From Ignavibacteria bacterium (GTDB taxonomy: Bacteria; Bacteroidota; Ignavibacteria; Ignavibacteriales; SURF-24): a stretch of DNA of 64,000 nt. The DNA lies in NCBI GenBank assembly GCA_025612245.1, contig JAAXKQ010000004.1:186001-250000 (forward strand), in the 5' to 3' direction. Positions 40,376-50,075 of this stretch are shown here, one piece after another. The notes beneath the pieces were generated by a model, which worked only from the letters and a program-made list of their open reading frames with translations, did not search any database and was not told where the DNA came from. Made by a program: the position numbers and the translations under genes. Position 1 is the first letter of the stretch; each line of letters begins with the position of its first letter.

Positions 40376-41053
40376 ATGAAACTGAAATATAAAAACCAGA
40401 AAACAGGAAGAAAGATGGTGGGGGAGGCAGCCGGTTCTTGGGACTTATATCCACACTGCATCTTCGGCCTTTCGAGAAATGATTTCTATACGGGAGGCAA
40501 TGGTATTTATCATTTCTCAGGCTCCTCATGGAAAGAGATATTTGTTCCAAAGGTAGACAGTTTAATTTATCGTGATGTTGTAATAACGGACATAAGAGGA
40601 ACTAGTCCTGATAACATCTGGGCTGTGGGATATGGCCTCAGGGATGAGAATACTAGCTATGGCGTAATTTATCACTACAATGGAAAGGATTGGAAGCAAA
40701 GCACGATCCTGAAAATGAAGAACATTAACCCTTTGCGTATCTATCCCACTGGTGAAGGAACTAAATGCCTGATTTTTGCTGTAGACGATAAGTATGACAC
40801 TTTCCCTGATGGTACCAAAGTATTCGAATATGACGGGAACTCTACGCTGAAGGAGATCGCTTCGGGCTCGTTCTGGGAAAGAGAAAATCAGACAAGGATT
40901 TATGCCATAAATGGAAAGCTCTTTGTGGAAATGAACAATATTATCTATGAATACTACTACGGGCAGTACAGGAAATTAATCCCAATCCAGAGACTGAATA
41001 ACGGATTGATAATAGGAGGTAGAAGTAAAAGCGACATCGGTATTTGTCAATAA
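40376..41053 (+). pseudogene. Truncated beta-propeller-like protein fragment
   Basis: A 225-codon frame without signal peptide or recognisable start. Its repeats (GLSRNDFYTGGNGIYHFSG, IRGTSPDNIWAVGYG, then VIYHYNGKDWKQ) are typical of internal blades of large exported propeller proteins in this phylum. The frame stops 3 bases before the left end of the insertion element at 41057. The N-terminus begins only 38 bases from the kinase start, so the 5' part is missing too. It is most likely a relic left by insertion and deletion. Confidence 0.6.
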
Positions 41054-41203
41054 AAATGAGACAAAATTTTATAAATATTTAAGCAACATTTTTAAACTCT
41101 TCAATAGATTCCCCGGGTTTATTTATCCACACTTTCTCATCAGGCTTTTTAACCTTCGTTGGTCCTTTTACAAACCTCTCCGGGTGTAACTTATAAATTC
41201 TAT

Positions 41204-42127
41204 TCATGACAGACTGCCTGAGAACGTGGACCTCGTCAACCCTTCCGTAGTGCACGTCCTCAGAGGCGTGAAGTAAGCAATGCCAGAGTGCTTGTGGCTC
41301 TTGTTATACCAGTTGAAGAAATCCCCAGAGAACATTCTTGCCTCTTCAATCGAATGGAAGCATTCCGGGAAGTCAGGCCTGTATTTCAGGGTCTTAAAGA
41401 CCGACACTCGGAGTAAGGGTTGTCATTTGAAACATGAGGCCTGGAGTGAGTCTTTGTAACTCCAAGATCCATCAGAAGCTGCCCCACGGAACTTGACTTC
41501 ATGGATGACCCCCGGTCTGCATGAAGCGTAAGCTCACCCTTCTTTATACCCTGCCTTCTGATGGTTTCATTTATCAGTATTTTTGCAAGTGAGGCCGACT
41601 CCCTGCAGGCCACCATTCAGCCAGCCACTACTCTTGAATATACGTCCATAATTTTATAGAGGTAGTAATAAGTCCATTTCCTGGGGCCTTTCAGTTTCGT
41701 TATATCCCAGCTCCAGAGCTCATTGGGCCGTGTTGCCAGCAGCTCAGGCTTCCGGTAATTCCCCTTGTCTTTCTGCCTACGCTGCACATTTTCCTTATTT
41801 TTCATGAGGATTCTGTACATTGTCCTGATAAGCAAAGGTAGACCGACTCGTCAAGCAGTGTGGCATAAACCTCAGGTGGTGCCACATCGCAAAATCTCTC
41901 GCTGTTCAGTAAGGAAAGAACCTTTTCTTCCTCCTCTTCTCTAAGAGCTCCTGGGGATGCCGGCAGGGCTTCTTTTCTTCAGGAGAACTTACCTCTTCTT
42001 TCTTACGTGTAATGCGGTAGTAAGTTGCCCTTGAGAGTCCCAGGACACTACACATTTCATACTTGTCTATAAGACAACTCTCTTCCTTTGACTTCTCTAA
42101 AATCACCTCTGCCATCCTAAGCCTCAC
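41204..42127 (-). pseudogene. IS3-family orfB transposase, broken by several frameshifts
   Basis: Four consecutive fragments on the minus strand in different frames (42127-41906, 41835-41617, 41616-41386, 41407-41204) together read as one IS3 OrfB: helix-turn-helix CSVLGLSRATYYRITRKK, then WSWDITKLKGPRKWTYYYLY with the first Asp, LHADRGSSMKS with the second Asp, DNPYSE with the Glu, and FKTLKYRPDFPECFHSIEEAR to the end. Indels or stops separate each piece, so no active transposase can be made. Confidence 0.85.
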
Positions 42128-42181
42128 TTCAGCATGGGAGATTACTCCTTCTCCTCCTTGTCCGGGTTCAGCAAGATTGAA

Positions 42182-42628
42182 TTATTTTTGGGGGAAGTCT
42201 ATTATCATCTCACTTTTCTGGAGCTTTTTCCTTGTTGCTTCAAGCTCACGCTCGAGCGCCTTTACCTTTTCTTCAAGCTCTTTTTCCCTTGAAGACGGTG
42301 CCGGTTTAGTATGTACCTGCTTACTTATATTATTCTTATTTTCACTCATCTGAAACTTCTTTTCCCATTTCCTTGCCAAATTATAATATACGCCTTCCTG
42401 TCTTAAGTATCCGCCTATTTCACCCGTACCTGATTGCCTGATCTGCTGAATGCGTTCTACTACTTTCCTCTTGTAACTTTCTGTGTACTTCTTCCGCTTT
42501 TTGAAAGAACCCGACTGGACCTCAGTTTCCTGACTGTAAAACCTTTCTTTCTTCTCATCAGTTCCTCCAGTTGTCGCCACACCGGCGGCTCCTTCCGTCA
42601 CTGATCTTTTTTCTTCATTAGAATTCAT
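42182..42628 (-). CDS. IS3-family orfA transposase subunit
   Basis: 148 residues. The first 40 are low complexity; then KKYTESYKRKVVERIQQIR and a helix-turn-helix-like region (YYNLARKWEKKFQ), followed by a long leucine-zipper coiled coil (REKELEEKVKALERELEAT) and the end KLQKSEMIIDFPQK, typical of IS3 OrfA. OrfA normally joins OrfB by ribosomal frameshifting; here orfB is broken, so the protein has no partner in this copy. Confidence 0.8.
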   Translation of the reverse strand: MNSNEEKRSVTEGAAGVATTGGTDEKKERFYSQETEVQSGSFKKRKKYTESYKRKVVERIQQIRQSGTGEIGGYLRQEGVYYNLARKWEKKFQMSENKNNISKQVHTKPAPSSREKELEEKVKALERELEATRKKLQKSEMIIDFPQK

Positions 42629-42689
42629 GTAATCTCTTAGACTTTCTCGCCCTCACAAGTTAACGGTTTTTTTATTATTTTTTGTCTCA

Positions 42690-43761: not shown

Positions 43762-44991
43762 ATGAAGAAATACAGATTTTTGATTTATCTCCTTTTGTTA
43801 ATTTCTTTTATAAGTTGTTCGTGTTCCGATAGCGGTATGATCAATAATGGAGGCAATAACGAGGATAATCCTGCCTATGTACTTACAACACAAACAGCCA
43901 GTACTATTAGTGCTGAATATAAACTGTATAATTTTGTTGTTAAAAATAACCAATGTGAAAAAAGAAACATTATGGTTAGAGGAAGGATAGATACTAAAGC
44001 AGATGAGGGGGGGAAAATTATTAACGATATTCGTGTGATCTGGGATGATAATGAGTACGGTTCAACCTCCTCTGTAGTGTATATAAATCCGCCCGAAAAG
44101 TCTGAAAACTATTATAATATGAACACTAATGAATTCGTTGTTCCATTTACTTATCAATGTACAATGCCTTTCAATTATCCATTAACTCTTTTAGGAGGAA
44201 CCGATAATGGTGAGCCGACTGAAAAACGAGTTTGTTCTGCTACTACATCTATCCACGTTGTTCAAGACAGAAAAATGAAAATTCACTATAATTATATGAA
44301 GAGTTTTGATATATTAAATGATAACACGGTGGGGGATCATGTTTTGGATAACTTTACGAATGCATTTGCTGAAGCGAACACCGGTATTGAAGTTGCCAAG
44401 GAAAATAAAGGAGAAATAGCGAATGCAAACCTTCAAATAGACGATATTAGTTGGGATGAGGATCTTTATAATGAGTTAATAAATAAAAAATTAATTCCTT
44501 CAGGAAATTTGATGCCTGATGGTACTGCCACCCCAGATGCGTCTGTGTGGCTTATAGGATTGATGGGCTACTCCTCTACTGCCACCCAAGGAAGTGAACT
44601 TGCGGGAGGGTACACTTTGAGGACCACAAATACCACAGGGAAATTATTAGCGGTTACGTGTATTTTTGTTGAAAAAGCCAAATTGCAATATCCAAACGAC
44701 ACTGAAAAACAAAAGAAATTTGTATCTGTAGTAACATGCCATGAATTGGGACACGCCAGAGCAATTGAACTCACTAATGAACAAACTCCATTCCTTTTTC
44801 TTGATGTTTTTAATGGACTTACTTATGGGAATTTGACTAGTGATGATCATACTGGTGGTCATAATGGCCTTAATAAAGATACCTGCGTTATGTCCTATGG
44901 AATCCCCGATAAGCAAATTGAAAAGATTCATTTCTGTTCTGGTCATCTACAAATGTTATTCAATTGTTCATCCCAAGATGGAGGATTTTAA
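43762..44991 (+). CDS. Metzincin-like zinc metalloprotease lipoprotein
   Basis: 409 residues from the ATG at 43762. The start MKKYRFLIYLLLLISFISC is a lipoprotein signal with the lipobox FISC. Near residue 325 the zinc site reads VTCHELGHARAIEL, and near 374 CVMSYGIPDKQ looks like the Met-turn of metzincins. The third zinc ligand could be a His in DDHTGGHNGLN, further away than in the classic HExxHxxGxxH. The gene is AT-rich compared with housekeeping neighbours. A longer frame to 43600 exists but is not supported. It lies 2 bases upstream of the next gene. Family not identified. Confidence 0.6.
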   Translation: MKKYRFLIYLLLLISFISCSCSDSGMINNGGNNEDNPAYVLTTQTASTISAEYKLYNFVVKNNQCEKRNIMVRGRIDTKADEGGKIINDIRVIWDDNEYGSTSSVVYINPPEKSENYYNMNTNEFVVPFTYQCTMPFNYPLTLLGGTDNGEPTEKRVCSATTSIHVVQDRKMKIHYNYMKSFDILNDNTVGDHVLDNFTNAFAEANTGIEVAKENKGEIANANLQIDDISWDEDLYNELINKKLIPSGNLMPDGTATPDASVWLIGLMGYSSTATQGSELAGGYTLRTTNTTGKLLAVTCIFVEKAKLQYPNDTEKQKKFVSVVTCHELGHARAIELTNEQTPFLFLDVFNGLTYGNLTSDDHTGGHNGLNKDTCVMSYGIPDKQIEKIHFCSGHLQMLFNCSSQDGGF

Positions 44992-44993
44992 TT

Positions 44994-45887
44994 ATGAAAA
45001 AGAGCCTATTTATTTTCTTCCTTTGCATAGTAAATTATAGCTGTATCTGTGCTCAGGATTTAACACTCAAGCTTACCCTGGATAAGAGCGAGTTCTTAAA
45101 GGGGGAGCCGATCTATGGCTTTGCCTTTTTAACAAATAATTCAAGTACAGTTAAAATTTGCCCGCTTAAGGGGTCAACGAAACTACTGCTCCTGTTCATG
45201 GATAATAACAGGAACCTCCTGCAGTCGGGAGTAGCACAAAGGCCGTTTGATTGTGCAGAAAAAGTTGATTTTAAGAAGGGTGAATCTATGGGGGCATTTT
45301 TGCAAATCAGCAGGGCTATATCGAAAGATTTGACTCCGGGTATTTCTGTCTGGGAACCGAGATCAGTAAAAACAGGGAAATATATCCTGCAATTAGCATA
45401 TGTTTATCAGGACACCTCAGGCAACAGCGATGAACATAAAGAATTCTATTCTGATCCAATTGAAATCAGTGTTGTTGATCCGGTGACTGAAACTGATAAA
45501 ACGGTCTATAAAATGCTGACGGATGAATCAAAAATGCACATTATTGACATGCCTAATGAGGAGAGGGCTGGTTATGCTCAGATGCTGCTGGACGTGATTA
45601 AAAACAATCCCGATTCCAGGTATTTCCCGGCTGCCTATTATAATCTGTTTTATGCTTTTGGGGAGAACGACTATTACAAGTTCGATTCCATCATTGAAAA
45701 CATGTTTATTAAGTATCCTGAATCAGTAATGGGTGCTGTTACCTTTACATGGTATAATACCCACAGAGAAAAAGTATTTAAGTCAAAAGAATTCTATAAG
45801 AAGGTTGGTGGCAGAACGAAAGAGTTATTAAAGTCCTATAATAAATTCTATAAGAAGCTTCTTAAAGAAATGGATGATTCTTTATAA
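44994..45887 (+). CDS. Exported protein with BsuPI-like beta domain and helical tail
   Basis: 297 residues. A signal peptide (MKKSLFIFFLCIVNYSCICA) ends before QDLTLKLTLDKSEF. The next 130 residues form an Ig-like domain, similar to the BsuPI proteinase-inhibitor type (FLKGEPIYGFAFLTNNSS, then KTGKYILQLAYVY). Residues 165-297 are helical and TPR-like (YFPAAYYNLFYAFGENDYY). GGAGG is 9 bases before the ATG. It sits directly after the metzincin-like protease gene, so an inhibitor or chaperone role is conceivable but not shown. Confidence 0.55.
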   Translation: MKKSLFIFFLCIVNYSCICAQDLTLKLTLDKSEFLKGEPIYGFAFLTNNSSTVKICPLKGSTKLLLLFMDNNRNLLQSGVAQRPFDCAEKVDFKKGESMGAFLQISRAISKDLTPGISVWEPRSVKTGKYILQLAYVYQDTSGNSDEHKEFYSDPIEISVVDPVTETDKTVYKMLTDESKMHIIDMPNEERAGYAQMLLDVIKNNPDSRYFPAAYYNLFYAFGENDYYKFDSIIENMFIKYPESVMGAVTFTWYNTHREKVFKSKEFYKKVGGRTKELLKSYNKFYKKLLKEMDDSL

Positions 45888-46016: not shown

Positions 46017-49000
46017 TTGAAAAGATTATTATTGATTCTTTCGTTATTGACAATTATTGTCCAAGGACAAGTTATCAAAACTCCATTTTTAAGATGTATT
46101 CCACCCGATGAGAATAATATAGTCGAGGAAAAGATTGAAGAAATAAACAACATTTTAATACAACGTAGGACCCTTAGTTCAGTTGTATCGCAAGATACGG
46201 CAGATTCTCTTAACCGGCAAAAGTATAAAGATTTGAGCAATCAGATAATTAAATTAGAAATTCAAAGAATATATAATAATGAAAAAATAATCAGTGTAGA
46301 ATGTAAAGTTCTATATAAAAAAGTAAATAAAATAAAAAGTGTAACAAGAAAACTAGAATTTGATAAAAGCCTAAATCTCGAAATAATGAATATTGATGTA
46401 TTAAATGAGATTTCTGATGACGAGATTGATACTCTGGAGGTGAAATGTATCTCAAATGATGCAGCCAAACTTGCAGGTATTACAGCTACAACTTTATCTT
46501 TAAATAATGTGCCTACTGTAAGTCTAGTGAACAGCAGTTCAACACTAATATCTATTCCTTTTGCAACAATAGATAATAATGATATATTTTCAGTCGATTG
46601 TAACTTAATAAGATCGAAGTATGATGGCAAATCATTATTTGCTCTGGGCTCTGCACCACAGATAAGTGCTAGTATGATTACTACAAATGCTAATCTGTAT
46701 ATAATTGATGTCGTAACGTTTTATTATGACCCCAAATGGAGTAGAATTGTTTATAGTAAAAAAGACGATGATAATTATTTTAATGTTAAGACATATGGTG
46801 ACAATCCTGAAGATCCTGTTCATTTTGCCTGGGTGCAATCAATTTGTACTTCACCGGCTGGCAATTTATTCGTGTGTGACCGTGCAACAAGAAAGATCTA
46901 CAAATTCAGTTATGACTTTGCTAATCATAATCTGACCTGCATTGGAAATGAAAGTTTTGTTGCTCCTGGACATTTACAAGCGCCTTCCGATATTACATGT
47001 TATTCATATAAAGGCACTACTTGGTTATTAGTCGCAGATGCTGCCAGTAATTCCATCCATATATTTAATCCGGACAATGGTGCTTTTGCAGGTGATATTG
47101 AAACATTTTCAACTGGTACTTCTACCAATTCATTAAATTCTCCTACAAAACTTATTACTTATAGTGATGTAATAGCATTTATAGGGAATAACAATTGTTT
47201 TTATAAGGGTACCTGGCAAGGATATGGAAATACCATTATAGATGGAAAAACGGTTTATTTCCCTAATGATTGTTTGCTTGCTGGTCTTGGAGTAGATCAT
47301 AATGGTACGTTTTCAGTTTGCGATCCGGCCAAAATGGCAATACATAGAATAAGTGGGTCAGGGGAGTATATGTGTTCCATGGTTTTCCCATACCTCTATT
47401 ATCCATGTGATATGACAGAAGCACTTATGAGCGAAATGCATAAGGTAATGGCAACTTATGTTTCAAGTGTTTGGGGTGAAAATACTGGATTAAGGACATT
47501 CCTTCCAGGAATAGACATTCTGGATTTTAGAACTGAATATACTTTAGATGGGAAAACTCACATTTTTTACAAATTATCAGATCCTGCGCAAGTTACTGTA
47601 CAATTAAAGCGTGGTTCAGATGGTGTAATAGTTTTTAATAGCAACCATGTAACAAGTTCAGGAGGTACTTTTGAAGATACATTTGATAATAATTCTTTTG
47701 GTGCTGGAAGTTATACCTTTATCCTAAAATGCACCCCATACTGGAATTCACTTTATGGAACATACGGATTAGAAAAAATACTTGAGCGGTCAGTTGATAT
47801 TGGAAATGTTGTTAGTGTTACATTATCAGCGCCTCAATGTCCAGAAGCTCCAAATTCTAATTTATCTGGGAGTTATTATAAAATTAATGATAATATTAAA
47901 AGCAATATACTTGGTGTTCAAAATACTAATGTTAAAATAGAAGCTATTTCTCCGGCTGGATATTATTTCTTCCAGTGGTCAGATGGAAATACACAAAATT
48001 CAAGAAATTACCAGTTTAATTCATCTACAACGCTATCAGCAGTTTTTAAGAAACCTTTTGTATCCAACGCCCAAACTGCATTTACCAATACGAGCCAGCG
48101 TAAATTCGTAAGAACAGATAACGGCTATCTCCACTTAGTCTACGAAAGCATGAACCACATCTGGTATGAACGCTCGACTGATAACGGGTCAACGTGGCAG
48201 ATAATGAATGGCGGAAAGTATTTAGATCAGGGTGCTGCAGAGTCCAAAAACCCCTCAATTGCCACAATTTATGATGACGTTGCAATTGTATGGCAGGAAC
48301 AGTATGAGGGAGAGTTTTATGCACTCAAACTTGCAAGGTTCGATGGAAACACTGTCTTAAGGTACGTAAGAGAGCTCTATAACAGCTTCTGGAATGAACT
48401 ATACCCTCCTTTATACTCGACCAATGCCGACCCGGCTATTGCATTTAATGCACCTTCAGCCGTACTTGTCTGCTGGAAGAAGGAAATGCCCGAAGATCCG
48501 GAATCCTCAGGCATATGGTACAAATTCGGACAGGCCTATATAGATCCCTATGGAGCCATCAGGGATGACTCGAGATGGTATCAGGAAGATAAGATACAGG
48601 GGACGACTACTGATTCATATACTCCAACAGTGGAAAGAGCTCTTCCATGGCAAAGCTTTGCCCTGGCATGGGAGCAGAGGGGCTACCAGAGCTCCATTAA
48701 ATTTGCGATGATGAACTATAAGGTCGATGAATCCGGGGAGGATAATCCAGGGTACATGATGTACAACATTGCCCAACAGACAGTATCCGACTGGAACTAC
48801 TGCCAGCTGCACAGCAGGCCCTCGCTTGCCCTGATTCCATCTTCCACCGGAAGCGACAAGCTGGAGCTTGGCTGGGTGGGGGAAAGGGTTTACTATGAAA
48901 ATGGCGTCCAGAAAAGAGAGAAAAGCGCTTTCTACAGGAGAAATTCATATTCTAATGTAACACACAGCTGGACCTGGGATGCAACTACATGGCACTGGCA

Positions 49001-50075
49001 TTACGGACAGGTAAGAAACGTTAACGTCAATACGTCCAGTACAGACGGCGTTATAGGCTGGAACGAGGAGTCCGGAACGTGCCGTTATGTTAAAAGTTCA
49101 GACCTCTTCGGGACAAGAACTTTCTCTCTCTACGGGAGCCCTCTTTCAGGCTCCGGCATTCAGGTGAATAATGGAAGTGACTTAAATTCGGTCTACGGCA
49201 TGACCCTCAACACCAGCGCACCCCCATACTACTTCAAAAAATCGGGCTCGGTTTCTTCTCTCGGGAAAACAGGAGGTGAAGCACTCTCCAGCCGCACGGC
49301 CGTTGCAAGACTTGACAGCGCAGCCTTCTACATTTCCTCCTCCAGACTTAATCTTGACAAAAAGCGCCTGGGATTTACTTCTAAACGAGACAGCATAATG
49401 TCCTATGACGCGAAATCCATCGGTGAAGCCCTTTCAACCCGGACTTTCACGCCAGGAGCTAATTCCTCAATCAGCTATGAAATTGAATACGGGGCACTTG
49501 ATACGCTCTACTCTCAAAAAGCTCTTTCAAAAGATAAAGGCATAGACTGCCGACTGGAGCTTCAGGACGTGGATAACGGTGGTACCTTAAAAATTCTCGA
49601 CAGGTTTTCTCTTGACAAGTTATCAATGAGGGGCATAGATGGAAGCTCAAGGAAACTGTCAGGAAGTCTGGAGCTAAGGAAATTTGCAGGCAGGAACTTA
49701 AGGCTTAAGCTTGTGATTGAAGACGGCATAAATGCCCGGTGGGGACTGATGGAAAGAGTTCTTAACGCCGAAGATGAGAAAGAAATTGAAAAGATTACTT
49801 CAGAGAAGGTGTCCGACTACAGTTTAAGCCAGAACTACCCGAATCCCTTCAATCCCACGACCGTAATAAACTATCAGATTCCAAGAGCCTCAAAGGTCAC
49901 GCTTAAGGTTTATGACCTGCTGGGAAAAGAAGTTGCAACACTCGTTGATGAAGTAAAAAGCGAGGGAAAGTATTCGGTTGAATTCAACGCATCCAGCCTT
50001 CCAAGCGGGATCTATTTATATGAGATTCGTGCTAATGAATTCGTAAAAAGCGGTAAGATGATGCTCCTGAAATAA
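46017..50075 (+). CDS. Large exported multidomain protein with type IX sorting domain
   Basis: 1352 residues from a TTG start (AAGGAT upstream). A signal peptide is present (MKRLLLILSLLTIIVQG). Residues about 250-500 read like an NHL-type propeller (AWVQSICTSPAGNLFVCDRA). Residues about 640-680 form an InlB-like repeat (YYFFQWSDGNTQNSRNY). From about 680 a sialidase/BNR-like section follows (SMNHIWYERSTDNGSTWQI). The last 85 residues are the sorting domain (SQNYPNPFNPTTVINYQ to KSGKMMLLK). Base composition jumps at about 48055 from very AT-rich to the window average, so the gene looks chimeric. Ligand unknown; probably a surface-exposed binding protein. Confidence 0.85.
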   Translation: MKRLLLILSLLTIIVQGQVIKTPFLRCIPPDENNIVEEKIEEINNILIQRRTLSSVVSQDTADSLNRQKYKDLSNQIIKLEIQRIYNNEKIISVECKVLYKKVNKIKSVTRKLEFDKSLNLEIMNIDVLNEISDDEIDTLEVKCISNDAAKLAGITATTLSLNNVPTVSLVNSSSTLISIPFATIDNNDIFSVDCNLIRSKYDGKSLFALGSAPQISASMITTNANLYIIDVVTFYYDPKWSRIVYSKKDDDNYFNVKTYGDNPEDPVHFAWVQSICTSPAGNLFVCDRATRKIYKFSYDFANHNLTCIGNESFVAPGHLQAPSDITCYSYKGTTWLLVADAASNSIHIFNPDNGAFAGDIETFSTGTSTNSLNSPTKLITYSDVIAFIGNNNCFYKGTWQGYGNTIIDGKTVYFPNDCLLAGLGVDHNGTFSVCDPAKMAIHRISGSGEYMCSMVFPYLYYPCDMTEALMSEMHKVMATYVSSVWGENTGLRTFLPGIDILDFRTEYTLDGKTHIFYKLSDPAQVTVQLKRGSDGVIVFNSNHVTSSGGTFEDTFDNNSFGAGSYTFILKCTPYWNSLYGTYGLEKILERSVDIGNVVSVTLSAPQCPEAPNSNLSGSYYKINDNIKSNILGVQNTNVKIEAISPAGYYFFQWSDGNTQNSRNYQFNSSTTLSAVFKKPFVSNAQTAFTNTSQRKFVRTDNGYLHLVYESMNHIWYERSTDNGSTWQIMNGGKYLDQGAAESKNPSIATIYDDVAIVWQEQYEGEFYALKLARFDGNTVLRYVRELYNSFWNELYPPLYSTNADPAIAFNAPSAVLVCWKKEMPEDPESSGIWYKFGQAYIDPYGAIRDDSRWYQEDKIQGTTTDSYTPTVERALPWQSFALAWEQRGYQSSIKFAMMNYKVDESGEDNPGYMMYNIAQQTVSDWNYCQLHSRPSLALIPSSTGSDKLELGWVGERVYYENGVQKREKSAFYRRNSYSNVTHSWTWDATTWHWHYGQVRNVNVNTSSTDGVIGWNEESGTCRYVKSSDLFGTRTFSLYGSPLSGSGIQVNNGSDLNSVYGMTLNTSAPPYYFKKSGSVSSLGKTGGEALSSRTAVARLDSAAFYISSSRLNLDKKRLGFTSKRDSIMSYDAKSIGEALSTRTFTPGANSSISYEIEYGALDTLYSQKALSKDKGIDCRLELQDVDNGGTLKILDRFSLDKLSMRGIDGSSRKLSGSLELRKFAGRNLRLKLVIEDGINARWGLMERVLNAEDEKEIEKITSEKVSDYSLSQNYPNPFNPTTVINYQIPRASKVTLKVYDLLGKEVATLVDEVKSEGKYSVEFNASSLPSGIYLYEIRANEFVKSGKMMLLK

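What the first reader, a model, noticed from the sequence alone, without database searches (positions are those of the whole stretch)
43762..45887. Metzincin-like lipoprotease next to a proteinase-inhibitor-like protein
The two genes are 2 bases apart, both exported. The first has HELGH and a Met-turn candidate with an unusual distance between zinc ligands. The second has a BsuPI-like domain. A protease plus inhibitor pair in an accessory AT-rich stretch, upstream of a large surface protein, could be a new surface-processing or antagonism module.
Basis: inference. Interest (0 to 1): 0.5.

Follow-up and report, generated by a model that had tools for sequence, protein, structure and literature searches.

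The report
Swappable surface hydrolase cassette in Ignavibacteria
The two genes encode a predicted surface-bound zinc protease and an exported partner that, in a dozen related bacteria, sit just before the gene of one large surface protein, and other enzymes with other partners can take their place there, which looks like an exchangeable tool or weapon cassette rather than a lone protease with its inhibitor.

Summary
ORF A (43762-44991) is a lipoprotein whose predicted fold is a metzincin protease (VIA Z 11.8), with the third zinc histidine displaced: 31 residues after HExxH instead of 5. ORF B (44994-45887), 2 bases on, is an exported beta-sandwich plus helical protein, like BsuPI in fold only.

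The finding is larger than a pair. Next comes C (46017-50075), a type IX-secreted NHL-propeller protein. I accepted 14 A loci in 13 genomes of the same class. B is next in 14 of 14 (fused to A in one); C follows in 12 of 13 readable. Of 12 C genes without A and with readable upstream, 9 follow another hydrolase plus another exported partner: CHAP/NlpC-like (6), M74 murein endopeptidase (2), a different metzincin (1). The C tree rejects one origin of A-linked C (AU p 5e-46), and one CHAP+partner cassette (41-42% identical) sits before two distant C genes. So hydrolase and partner are exchanged in front of C. The window's C is chimeric: third-codon GC jumps from 0.21 to 0.51 at 48063, close to where homology to a resident protein begins.

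I read it as a polymorphic surface-hydrolase cassette, probably antagonistic. Function is inferred; B as inhibitor is unproven.

The parts
43762..44991 (+). gene A: lipoprotein metzincin-type metallopeptidase, 409 aa
   Evidence: AlphaFold2 model pLDDT 70.2, pTM 0.77; VIA-align Z 11.8 to acutolysin A over residues 168-406
43897..44271 (+). N-terminal Ig-like beta domain of A (residues 46-170)
   Evidence: model strands between 49 and 178; VIA matches of 46-170 to Ig-like folds, Z about 8-9
44740..44754 (+). HELGH (residues 327-331), first two zinc ligands and catalytic Glu
   Evidence: HE[LF]xH in all 14 A loci; in model helix 314-338, block pLDDT 92 for 321-330 and 69 for 331-340
44848..44850 (+). 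His363, proposed third zinc ligand after a 31-residue spacer
   Evidence: a His at this place in all 14 loci, spacer 6-31, matched by eye; metal geometry not tested
44884..44892 (+). CVM, Met-turn candidate (C375, M377)
   Evidence: C-x-Met in 11 of 14 loci; Leu, Thr, Phe in G236, G004, G610
44994..45887 (+). gene B: exported partner, 297 aa
   Evidence: AlphaFold2 model pLDDT 79.5, pTM 0.78; leave-one-out profile E 2.2e-40
45060..45476 (+). beta-sandwich domain of B (residues 23-161), arrestin/BsuPI/Spo0M-like fold
   Evidence: profile match to the arrestin C-domain E 7.6e-6; BsuPI 3isy TMt 0.60, Z 6.5
45489..45881 (+). helical, TPR-like domain of B (residues 166-296)
   Evidence: DSSP of the model; weak CpoB TPR match E 2.6e-4; weak PorW/SprE match E 0.0077, far below its cut-off
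46017..50075 (+). gene C: type IX-secreted surface protein, 1352 aa
   Evidence: Por_Secre_tail PF18962 E 2.9e-10; leave-one-out profile E 3.7e-58; homologous C in 12 of 13 readable A-B loci
46017..48062 (+). low-GC N-half of C: N-terminal domain and NHL propeller, GC3 0.21
   Evidence: change point; C profile matches NHL propellers of known structure, best E 7.2e-30
48042..48120 (+). composition junction inside C
   Evidence: GC3 0.21 to 0.51, dLL 65.7 against at most 10.0 in 500 shuffles; own-genome paralogue aligns from about codon 666 (48012) on
48063..50072 (+). resident-type C-half of C with T9SS tail
   Evidence: 35% identity to G000:C5:27302-29425, whose N-terminal part is an M6 protease domain, E 2.6e-57
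49836..50048 (+). T9SS type A sorting domain of C (residues 1274-1344)
   Evidence: PF18962 E 2.9e-10, TIGR04183 E 3.3e-11

Best explanation
A-B-C is one version of a polymorphic, type IX-linked surface-hydrolase module. SHOWN by sequence: a lipoprotein hydrolase, an exported partner and a T9SS-tailed NHL-propeller protein in fixed order; hydrolase and partner differ in kind between loci (metzincin+B, CHAP/NlpC-like with two kinds of partner, M74 with another partner) while C stays homologous; the enzyme-partner cassette has been exchanged relative to C; in the window the N-half of C has a foreign composition and is joined to a resident-type T9SS carrier half. PREDICTED: A is a zinc metzincin with an inserted loop before its third ligand. 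INFERRED: A is anchored in the outer membrane and acts outside the cell or on a neighbour's envelope; C, displayed by the T9SS, recognises or holds the target; B keeps A harmless, folded or docked during its passage through the periplasm (inhibitor, immunity protein or chaperone). M74 (by its Pfam name) and CHAP (recalled) are peptidoglycan-hydrolase families, so the likely target is an envelope and the likely use is antagonism between cells, working like lipoprotein polymorphic toxins.
For: Metzincin fold: VIA Z 11.8, rmsd 3.5, 174 aligned to acutolysin A; Z 10.4, 20% identity to archaemetzincin. B next to A in 14 of 14 accepted loci, gaps -11 to 21 bases in 13, one fused. C next in 12 of 13 readable, one with an ORF between B and C; leave-one-out E 2.9e-47 or better. 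Of 12 C genes without A and with readable upstream, 9 have another hydrolase plus another exported partner; none of 10 such partners is a B (best E 0.59). M74 at E 1.4e-12 and 3e-9. Exchange as a unit: the CHAP-like enzymes of G267 and G584 are 41% identical over 348 columns and their partners 42% over 375, while their C align over only 105 columns (32%); the C of G584 is instead 39.5% identical over 668 columns to the C of its congener G565, which has A-B. C tree: G565 (A) with G584 (CHAP) 98/97; G606 (M74) with G705 and G648 (A) 100/100; two C of genome G491 100/100 with different upstream genes. Label A needs 8 changes on that tree, no fewer than shuffled labels (mean 7.6); one clade of 12 A-linked C rejected, AU p 5e-46, and of 7 CHAP/Y-linked C, p 1.1e-7. 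Orphan B genes: 8 in 5 genomes, three in G267 where no A was found, and a split second B beside A in G705. Chimeric C. Precedents: SitA lipoprotein toxins with an adjacent immunity gene (PMC5562445, passages); TANFOR toxins enriched beside T9SS-tailed proteins (PMC7073777, outline and sections 6 and 9).
Against: No activity, toxicity or localisation is shown. Distances of A, B and C do not correlate (Mantel r -0.02, -0.13, 0.12; p 0.55, 0.82, 0.20), so A-B coevolution is not supported; identities near 20% may be saturated. The A and B trees are mostly unresolved; AU tests on B decide nothing (p 0.39-0.40) and do not separate A-linked from stand-alone B. The A-B fusion in G236 argues against B as a free inhibitor, although that A has lost the Met-turn Met. 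A metzincin is not a usual peptidoglycan hydrolase (recalled). CHAP and NlpC/P60 matches lie under Pfam's cut-offs. 3 of the 12 readable C genes without A do not show the pattern: G491:C183 has the partner but IS21 genes where the hydrolase would be, and the weak relatives G055 and G251 have other neighbours. In G004 the third ORF is not recognisable as C. The C tree has long branches. Foldseek's own best 50 rows for A held no metzincin; the fold rests on the VIA re-alignment of Foldseek's list.
Confidence: 0.4

Rival explanations
1. B is an accessory subunit (adaptor or substrate-binding module), not an inhibitor; A-B-C is a surface degradation or matrix-remodelling machine, with the hydrolase exchanged according to the available substrate (protein or cell wall).
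For: A and B fused in G236; some partners of the other hydrolases look like beta-propellers (PD40, NHL, SGL, DUF5128 matches, all below cut-off), a common binding fold; stand-alone B genes, three of them in G267 where no A was found.
Against: Exchange of enzyme kind together with its partner, orphan partner genes and strong divergence are more typical of conflict systems (recalled); I saw no transporter of a nutrient system shared by the listed neighbourhoods, but did not search for one.
Confidence: 0.3
2. A is a maturation protease for C or for its T9SS export, and B a chaperone.
For: Fixed gene order A-B-C and short gaps.
Against: The same C family stands behind CHAP-like and M74 enzymes, and enzyme type does not follow C phylogeny. 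A dedicated processing protease would be expected to follow its substrate.
Confidence: 0.1
3. A plain protease and proteinase-inhibitor pair (BsuPI-type) whose closeness to C means nothing.
For: Fold resemblance of B to BsuPI 3isy, TMt 0.60 and Z 6.5; A-B pairing in 14 of 14 loci.
Against: C is conserved too, 12 of 13 readable loci; no BsuPI profile match in 16 B proteins; the sandwich resembles arrestin, Spo0M and Ig domains as well.
Confidence: 0.08
4. Decaying accessory genes of foreign origin without present function in this strain.
For: AT-rich stretch beside a broken transposase; in-frame stops in A of G483; split B copy in G705.
Against: All three window genes are open over 409, 297 and 1352 codons, and HExxH and the third His are kept in 14 of 14 loci.
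Confidence: 0.08

Closest known systems
Metzincins of the adamalysin, archaemetzincin and leishmanolysin types
   Same: Predicted fold, HExxH, Met-turn candidate; leishmanolysin also has an insertion (62 residues) between the Gly and the last His (PMC5572447, passages).
   Different: Spacer of 6-31 residues in this family, 31 in the window; the Gly is missing in the window (HELGHARA); no significant Pfam or NCBIfam match; lipoprotein with an N-terminal Ig-like domain.
SitBAI lipoprotein toxin cassettes of myxobacteria
   Same: Lipoprotein with exchangeable toxic part, adjacent partner gene, accessory third gene (PMC5562445, passages).
   Different: SitA toxin domains are typically nucleases delivered by TraAB outer membrane exchange; here they are protease or envelope-type hydrolases next to a T9SS protein; toxicity untested.
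TANFOR polymorphic toxins of Bacteroidetes
   Same: Exported toxins enriched beside T9SS-tailed proteins (PMC7073777, sections 6 and 9).
   Different: No TANFOR-named match in A, B or C; here the hydrolase is a separate lipoprotein and the constant protein is an NHL-propeller protein.
BsuPI intracellular proteinase inhibitor (3isy)
   Same: Beta-sandwich fold of the B N-domain.
   Different: No sequence-profile match in 16 B proteins; B is exported and has a helical domain.

Membership tests
Metzincins, clan MA(M) | consensus HExxHxxGxxH/D | tested here: not met
   Window A reads HELGHARAIEL; the third His comes after 31 residues; no strict match in any of 14 loci, nearest spacer 6 in G699
Metzincins, clan MA(M) | metzincin fold of the catalytic domain | tested here: met
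   VIA-align Z 11.8, rmsd 3.5, 174 aligned, residues 168-406, on a model of pLDDT 70.2; not visible in Foldseek's best 50 rows
Metzincins, clan MA(M) | Met-turn below the zinc site | tested here: inconclusive
   C-x-M in 11 of 14 loci; no coordinates could be measured
Leishmanolysin M8 | insertion between Gly and third His; M8 profile | tested here: inconclusive
   Insertion present, but no Pfam family matched A significantly; leishmanolysin is not among the fold rows shown
Archaemetzincin M54 | HEXXHXXGXXHCX4CXMX17CXXC | tested here: not met
   Sequence of A; motif as quoted in the start of the abstract of PMC3427221 (search listing)
BsuPI, PF12690 | profile match | tested here: not met
   No match in 16 B proteins at E up to 1 (accession number recalled)
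BsuPI, PF12690 | beta-sandwich fold | tested here: inconclusive
   3isy TMt 0.60, Z 6.5, but Z under 8 and many unrelated sandwiches tie
BsuPI, PF12690 | inhibits a protease | not testable with these tools
   needs an assay
T9SS type A cargo (gene C) | C-terminal sorting domain | tested here: met
   PF18962 E 2.9e-10, TIGR04183 E 3.3e-11; 5 of 5 complete C genes scanned have it
Polymorphic toxin-immunity systems | constant part with exchangeable enzyme and partner | tested here: met
   three hydrolase folds beside homologous C; AU p 5e-46; shared CHAP cassette of G267 and G584 before distant C
Polymorphic toxin-immunity systems | orphan partner genes | tested here: met
   8 B genes without A beside them in G267, G444, G455, G456, G326
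Polymorphic toxin-immunity systems | toxicity and cognate neutralisation | not testable with these tools
   needs co-expression and competition assays
SitA lipoprotein toxins | TraAB in the genome | not tested
   -
TANFOR toxins | N-terminal TANFOR domain | tested here: inconclusive
   No TANFOR-named family among matches of A, B, C; whether the libraries hold it was not checked

The most novel reading that the evidence does not exclude
A previously undescribed class of polymorphic antagonism system in Ignavibacteria: outer-membrane lipoprotein hydrolases of at least three unrelated folds (inserted-loop metzincin, CHAP-like, M74), each with its own exported immunity-like partner, exchanged as cassettes in front of a constant T9SS-displayed NHL-propeller protein that aims or delivers them; the constant protein itself can be rebuilt by splicing its N-half onto resident T9SS carriers.
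Probability: 0.33. Interest if true: 0.82.

Novelty: new variant of a known kind. Interest (0 to 1): 0.62.

Why it matters
If true, it would give these T9SS bacteria a surface or contact weapon system and would support a role of T9SS in competition, which PMC7073777 only proposes (section 9). It also adds a metzincin family whose third-ligand spacer varies from 6 to 31 residues between relatives, useful for testing how much that motif tolerates. The exchange test (enzyme type against C phylogeny) is repeatable on any larger genome set.

Tried and rejected
Single-sequence tblastn in genome contigs found nothing; a profile was needed. Viral contigs: no relative. PADLOC: no match for A, B or C; one weak BrxF match (E 0.015) to a CHAP-type protein, ignored. 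Foldseek alone on A was uninformative: Ig-like, glycosidase and other rows. Mantel tests of A-B, A-C and B-C were not significant. AU tests on B decided nothing. GC3 change points inside C exceeded shuffles clearly in the window, G565 and G584 (the last near the end of its frame) and marginally in G236, of 13 C genes tested, so the chimera claim is made for the window only. The own genome holds 128 matches to the C-half, nearly all to the T9SS tail alone.

I first counted 9 of 9 other hydrolases; with G491:C183, G055 and G251 included it is 9 of 12. The M6 label for the own-genome paralogue is supported by NCBIfam (E 2.6e-57) though not by Pfam at E up to 0.1.

Rows dropped before counts: weak A-profile hits that I looked at and rejected because the neighbourhood holds a matrixin-like HExxHxxGxxH protein without B (G429, G397, G140) or no HExxH (G462:C63); weak hits not examined (G443; G021, G042, G051; G396); most weak single-sequence hits. 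The weak B hit G496:C462 (E 0.003) is a 235-aa TPR-like ORF and was left out. From the C searches I examined the 8 places with E below 1e-70 that lack A, and the 5 new places; places weaker than E 1e-20 were not examined. G385:C42 was not counted as readable (contig starts inside C). The GC3 baseline used 33 of the 53 ORFs of 150 aa or more, chosen as likely genes. The BLAST comparison of N- and C-parts used 13 of the 22 C genes, plus one own-genome row for the C-parts.

Papers: no description of this module turned up in search listings 54, 55, 80, 81, 99, 100, 106, 107; this is not proof of absence. PMC6414381 (passages) describes a surface lipoprotein elastase of another clan and was set aside.
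Full report
What is there. ORF A runs from 43762 to 44991 and ORF B from 44994 to 45887, both on the + strand, 2 bases apart. A begins with a lipobox, B with a signal peptide (read by eye; no predictor was run). A has HELGH, a further His 31 residues later, CVM and FCSGH. The stretch from 43 to 48 kb is AT-rich. A's GC3 is 0.29, B's 0.42, against a mean of 0.529 (SD 0.046) for 33 other ORFs of the window. Neither protein matches a Pfam or NCBIfam family above its cut-off; B has a weak match to the TPR part of PorW/SprE (E 0.0077).

A is a metzincin by fold. AlphaFold2 on a 15-row alignment gave pLDDT 70.2 and pTM 0.77; blocks 301-330 are at 85-92, while residues 340-355 of the inserted loop are below 50. 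VIA-align placed residues 168-406 on acutolysin A (Z 11.8, rmsd 3.5, 174 aligned), on archaemetzincin (Z 10.4, 151 aligned, 20% identity) and on other metzincins. Foldseek by itself did not show this in its best 50 rows. The strict HExxHxxGxxH motif is not met. Across 14 loci the spacer between the second His and the conserved next His is 6, 8, 8, 9, 10, 12, 13, 15, 20, 21, 24, 26, 27 and 31 residues (matched by eye); G648 could also be read as 11. Leishmanolysin is the known precedent for an insertion at this place (PMC5572447, passages). C-x-M is present in 11 of 14; three members have Leu, Thr or Phe. All 14 keep HExxH and a His at the third place.

B is a beta-sandwich (residues 23-161) followed by helices (166-296), pLDDT 79.5, pTM 0.78. 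A B profile matches the arrestin C-domain (E 7.6e-6) and a CpoB TPR (2.6e-4) among solved chains. BsuPI appears at fold level only: TMt 0.60, Z 6.5, with Spo0M, Wzt and Ig domains alongside. None of 16 B proteins matched BsuPI in Pfam.

The module. Profile searches of 164 order genomes, 395 phylum genomes and 391 class genomes (the samples overlap) gave 14 accepted A loci in 13 genomes: G000 (window), G483, G491, G444 (two), G116, G385, G236, G004, G699, G705, G610, G565, G648. In the order, 7 of 164 genomes have accepted loci; the congener G516 has none. Of five titled records, three are named Ignavibacteriales or Melioribacteraceae and two only Bacteroidetes. B follows in 14 of 14; gaps run from -11 to 21 bases in 13, and in G236 A and B are one 673-aa ORF. 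A profile built without the tested row recognises each of these B (E 2.2e-40 in the window, weakest 1.7e-13 in G236; decoys 0.78 or worse). C follows in 12 of the 13 loci where the contig goes on (one ORF lies between B and C in G565; the G483 contig ends); in G004 the third ORF, 124 aa, is not recognised as C. Each of the 12 C is recognised by a profile of the others, E 2.9e-47 or better. The C profile matches NHL propellers of known structure (best E 7.2e-30; PknD 3.8e-20), and 5 of 5 complete C genes scanned end in a T9SS tail.

Other enzymes in the same seat. A C profile on the order and on a class sample of 159 found C genes without A. Twelve have readable upstream genes. Nine follow another hydrolase and another exported partner: CHAP/NlpC-like lipoproteins in G430, G463, G462, G019, G267 and G584 (Pfam E 1.9e-5 to 0.011, below the cut-offs), M74 in G606 and G551 (E 1.4e-12 and 3e-9, above the cut-off; in G551 the gene is split over two ORFs), and a matrixin-like metzincin in G413 whose N-terminus is not readable. 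Three do not: G491:C183 has the partner, then IS21 genes (IstB E 4.2e-62); G055 and G251, weak relatives (E 8.7e-34 and 7.4e-31), have other neighbours. Lipoboxes and signal peptides of these proteins were read by eye. The partners fall into families of their own: five related ones (G430, G463, G462, G019, G491:C183), a pair in G267 and G584, a pair in G606 and G551, and one alone in G413; none of the ten is a B.

Exchange. A tree of 22 C N-halves does not group by enzyme kind. G565 (A) joins G584 (CHAP-like) of the same genus at 98/97; G606 (M74) lies with G705 and G648 (A) at 100/100; two C of genome G491, one behind A-B and one behind a propeller-like partner, join at 100/100; the window's C joins that of G267 (CHAP) of its own family at 97/98, a join flagged for long branches. 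Label A needs 8 changes, against 7.6 for shuffled labels. Holding the 12 A-linked C together is rejected (p 5e-46), as is holding the 7 CHAP/Y-linked C together (p 1.1e-7). The clearest case: the CHAP-like enzymes of G267 and G584, of different families, are 41% identical over 348 columns and their partners 42% over 375, but their C align over only 105 columns (32%); the C of G584 is 39.5% identical over 668 columns to the C of G565, which stands behind A-B. So an enzyme and its partner moved together relative to C. The window's A pairs with A of G116, another family, at 93/97 (the G116 row is a fragment, 32% identity over 119 columns by BLAST). Among 13 C genes compared, N-halves are alike in 73 of 78 pairs; C-parts without the tail, with one own-genome row added, in 18 of 91.

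The window's C is a chimera. GC3 changes from 0.214 to 0.510 at 48063 (support 48042-48120; dLL 65.7, shuffles at most 10.0). The own genome holds one further relative of the whole C-half, at G000:C5, 35% identical, starting at about codon 666, that is 48012; its N-terminal part is an M6 protease domain (NCBIfam E 2.6e-57). So a low-GC N-half appears joined to a resident-type carrier half.

How it works. The anatomy and the exchange are shown by sequence. Catalysis by A is predicted. Surface location, target and the role of B are inferred. I favour an antagonistic surface-hydrolase system because the enzyme kind is exchanged together with its partner, M74 and CHAP are peptidoglycan-hydrolase families (CHAP recalled), orphan B genes occur (8 in 5 genomes, three in G267 where no A was found), and SitA and TANFOR systems give precedents. 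Against it stand the A-B fusion, the missing A-B distance correlation, undecided B tests and the absence of any activity data. An accessory role of B is nearly as likely as an inhibitory one.

Verdict.

Noticed in passing
window 41079-42652, - strand: Remains of an IS3-like transposase in several frames (family recalled; Pfam HTH_Tnp_1 only E 0.16), broken, upstream of the module; only one copy in the own genome.
   Followed up: partly
window 40376-41053, + strand: 225-aa ORF with propeller-like repeats (IWAVGYG...), no Pfam match, between the histidine kinase and the transposase remains.
   Followed up: no
L003/L050 185-493: A matrixin-like ORF (HEIGHVLGLGH) lies directly upstream of A in G491.
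   Followed up: no
L090 7994-8892: In G705 a second B-like gene, split into two ORFs, stands upstream of A; its first part is recognised by the B profile (E 1.8e-31).
   Followed up: partly
L002 900-2090: A of G483 has in-frame stops in its N-terminal half, so it is probably broken there.
   Followed up: partly
L088 1099-1473: In G004 a 124-aa exported ORF follows B where C is expected, but the C profile does not recognise it and Pfam finds nothing.
   Followed up: partly
L129 4914-7164: IS21-type istB and transposase genes sit where the hydrolase would be expected before the second C locus of G491.
   Followed up: partly
G516:C30:28138-28641 and G431:C42:51699-52166: Short frames matching only the N-terminal domain of C (E 3.7e-6 and 9.2e-9), with stops; possibly remnants of C in genomes without the module.
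   Followed up: no
G000:C5:25193-29428 (L159 5194-9429): M6-domain T9SS protein sharing the carrier half of the window's C, flanked by two similar lipoprotein-like ORFs of 478 and 486 aa.
   Followed up: partly
L144 and L145: Divergent C-like T9SS NHL proteins beside DUF3570 and HZS_alpha-containing proteins, a different context.
   Followed up: no
L051 301-360 and L052 7488-7547: The two A copies of G444 share nearly identical 5' leader reading frames (MQAYT[AE]FIKAVYG) before unlike proteins.
   Followed up: no
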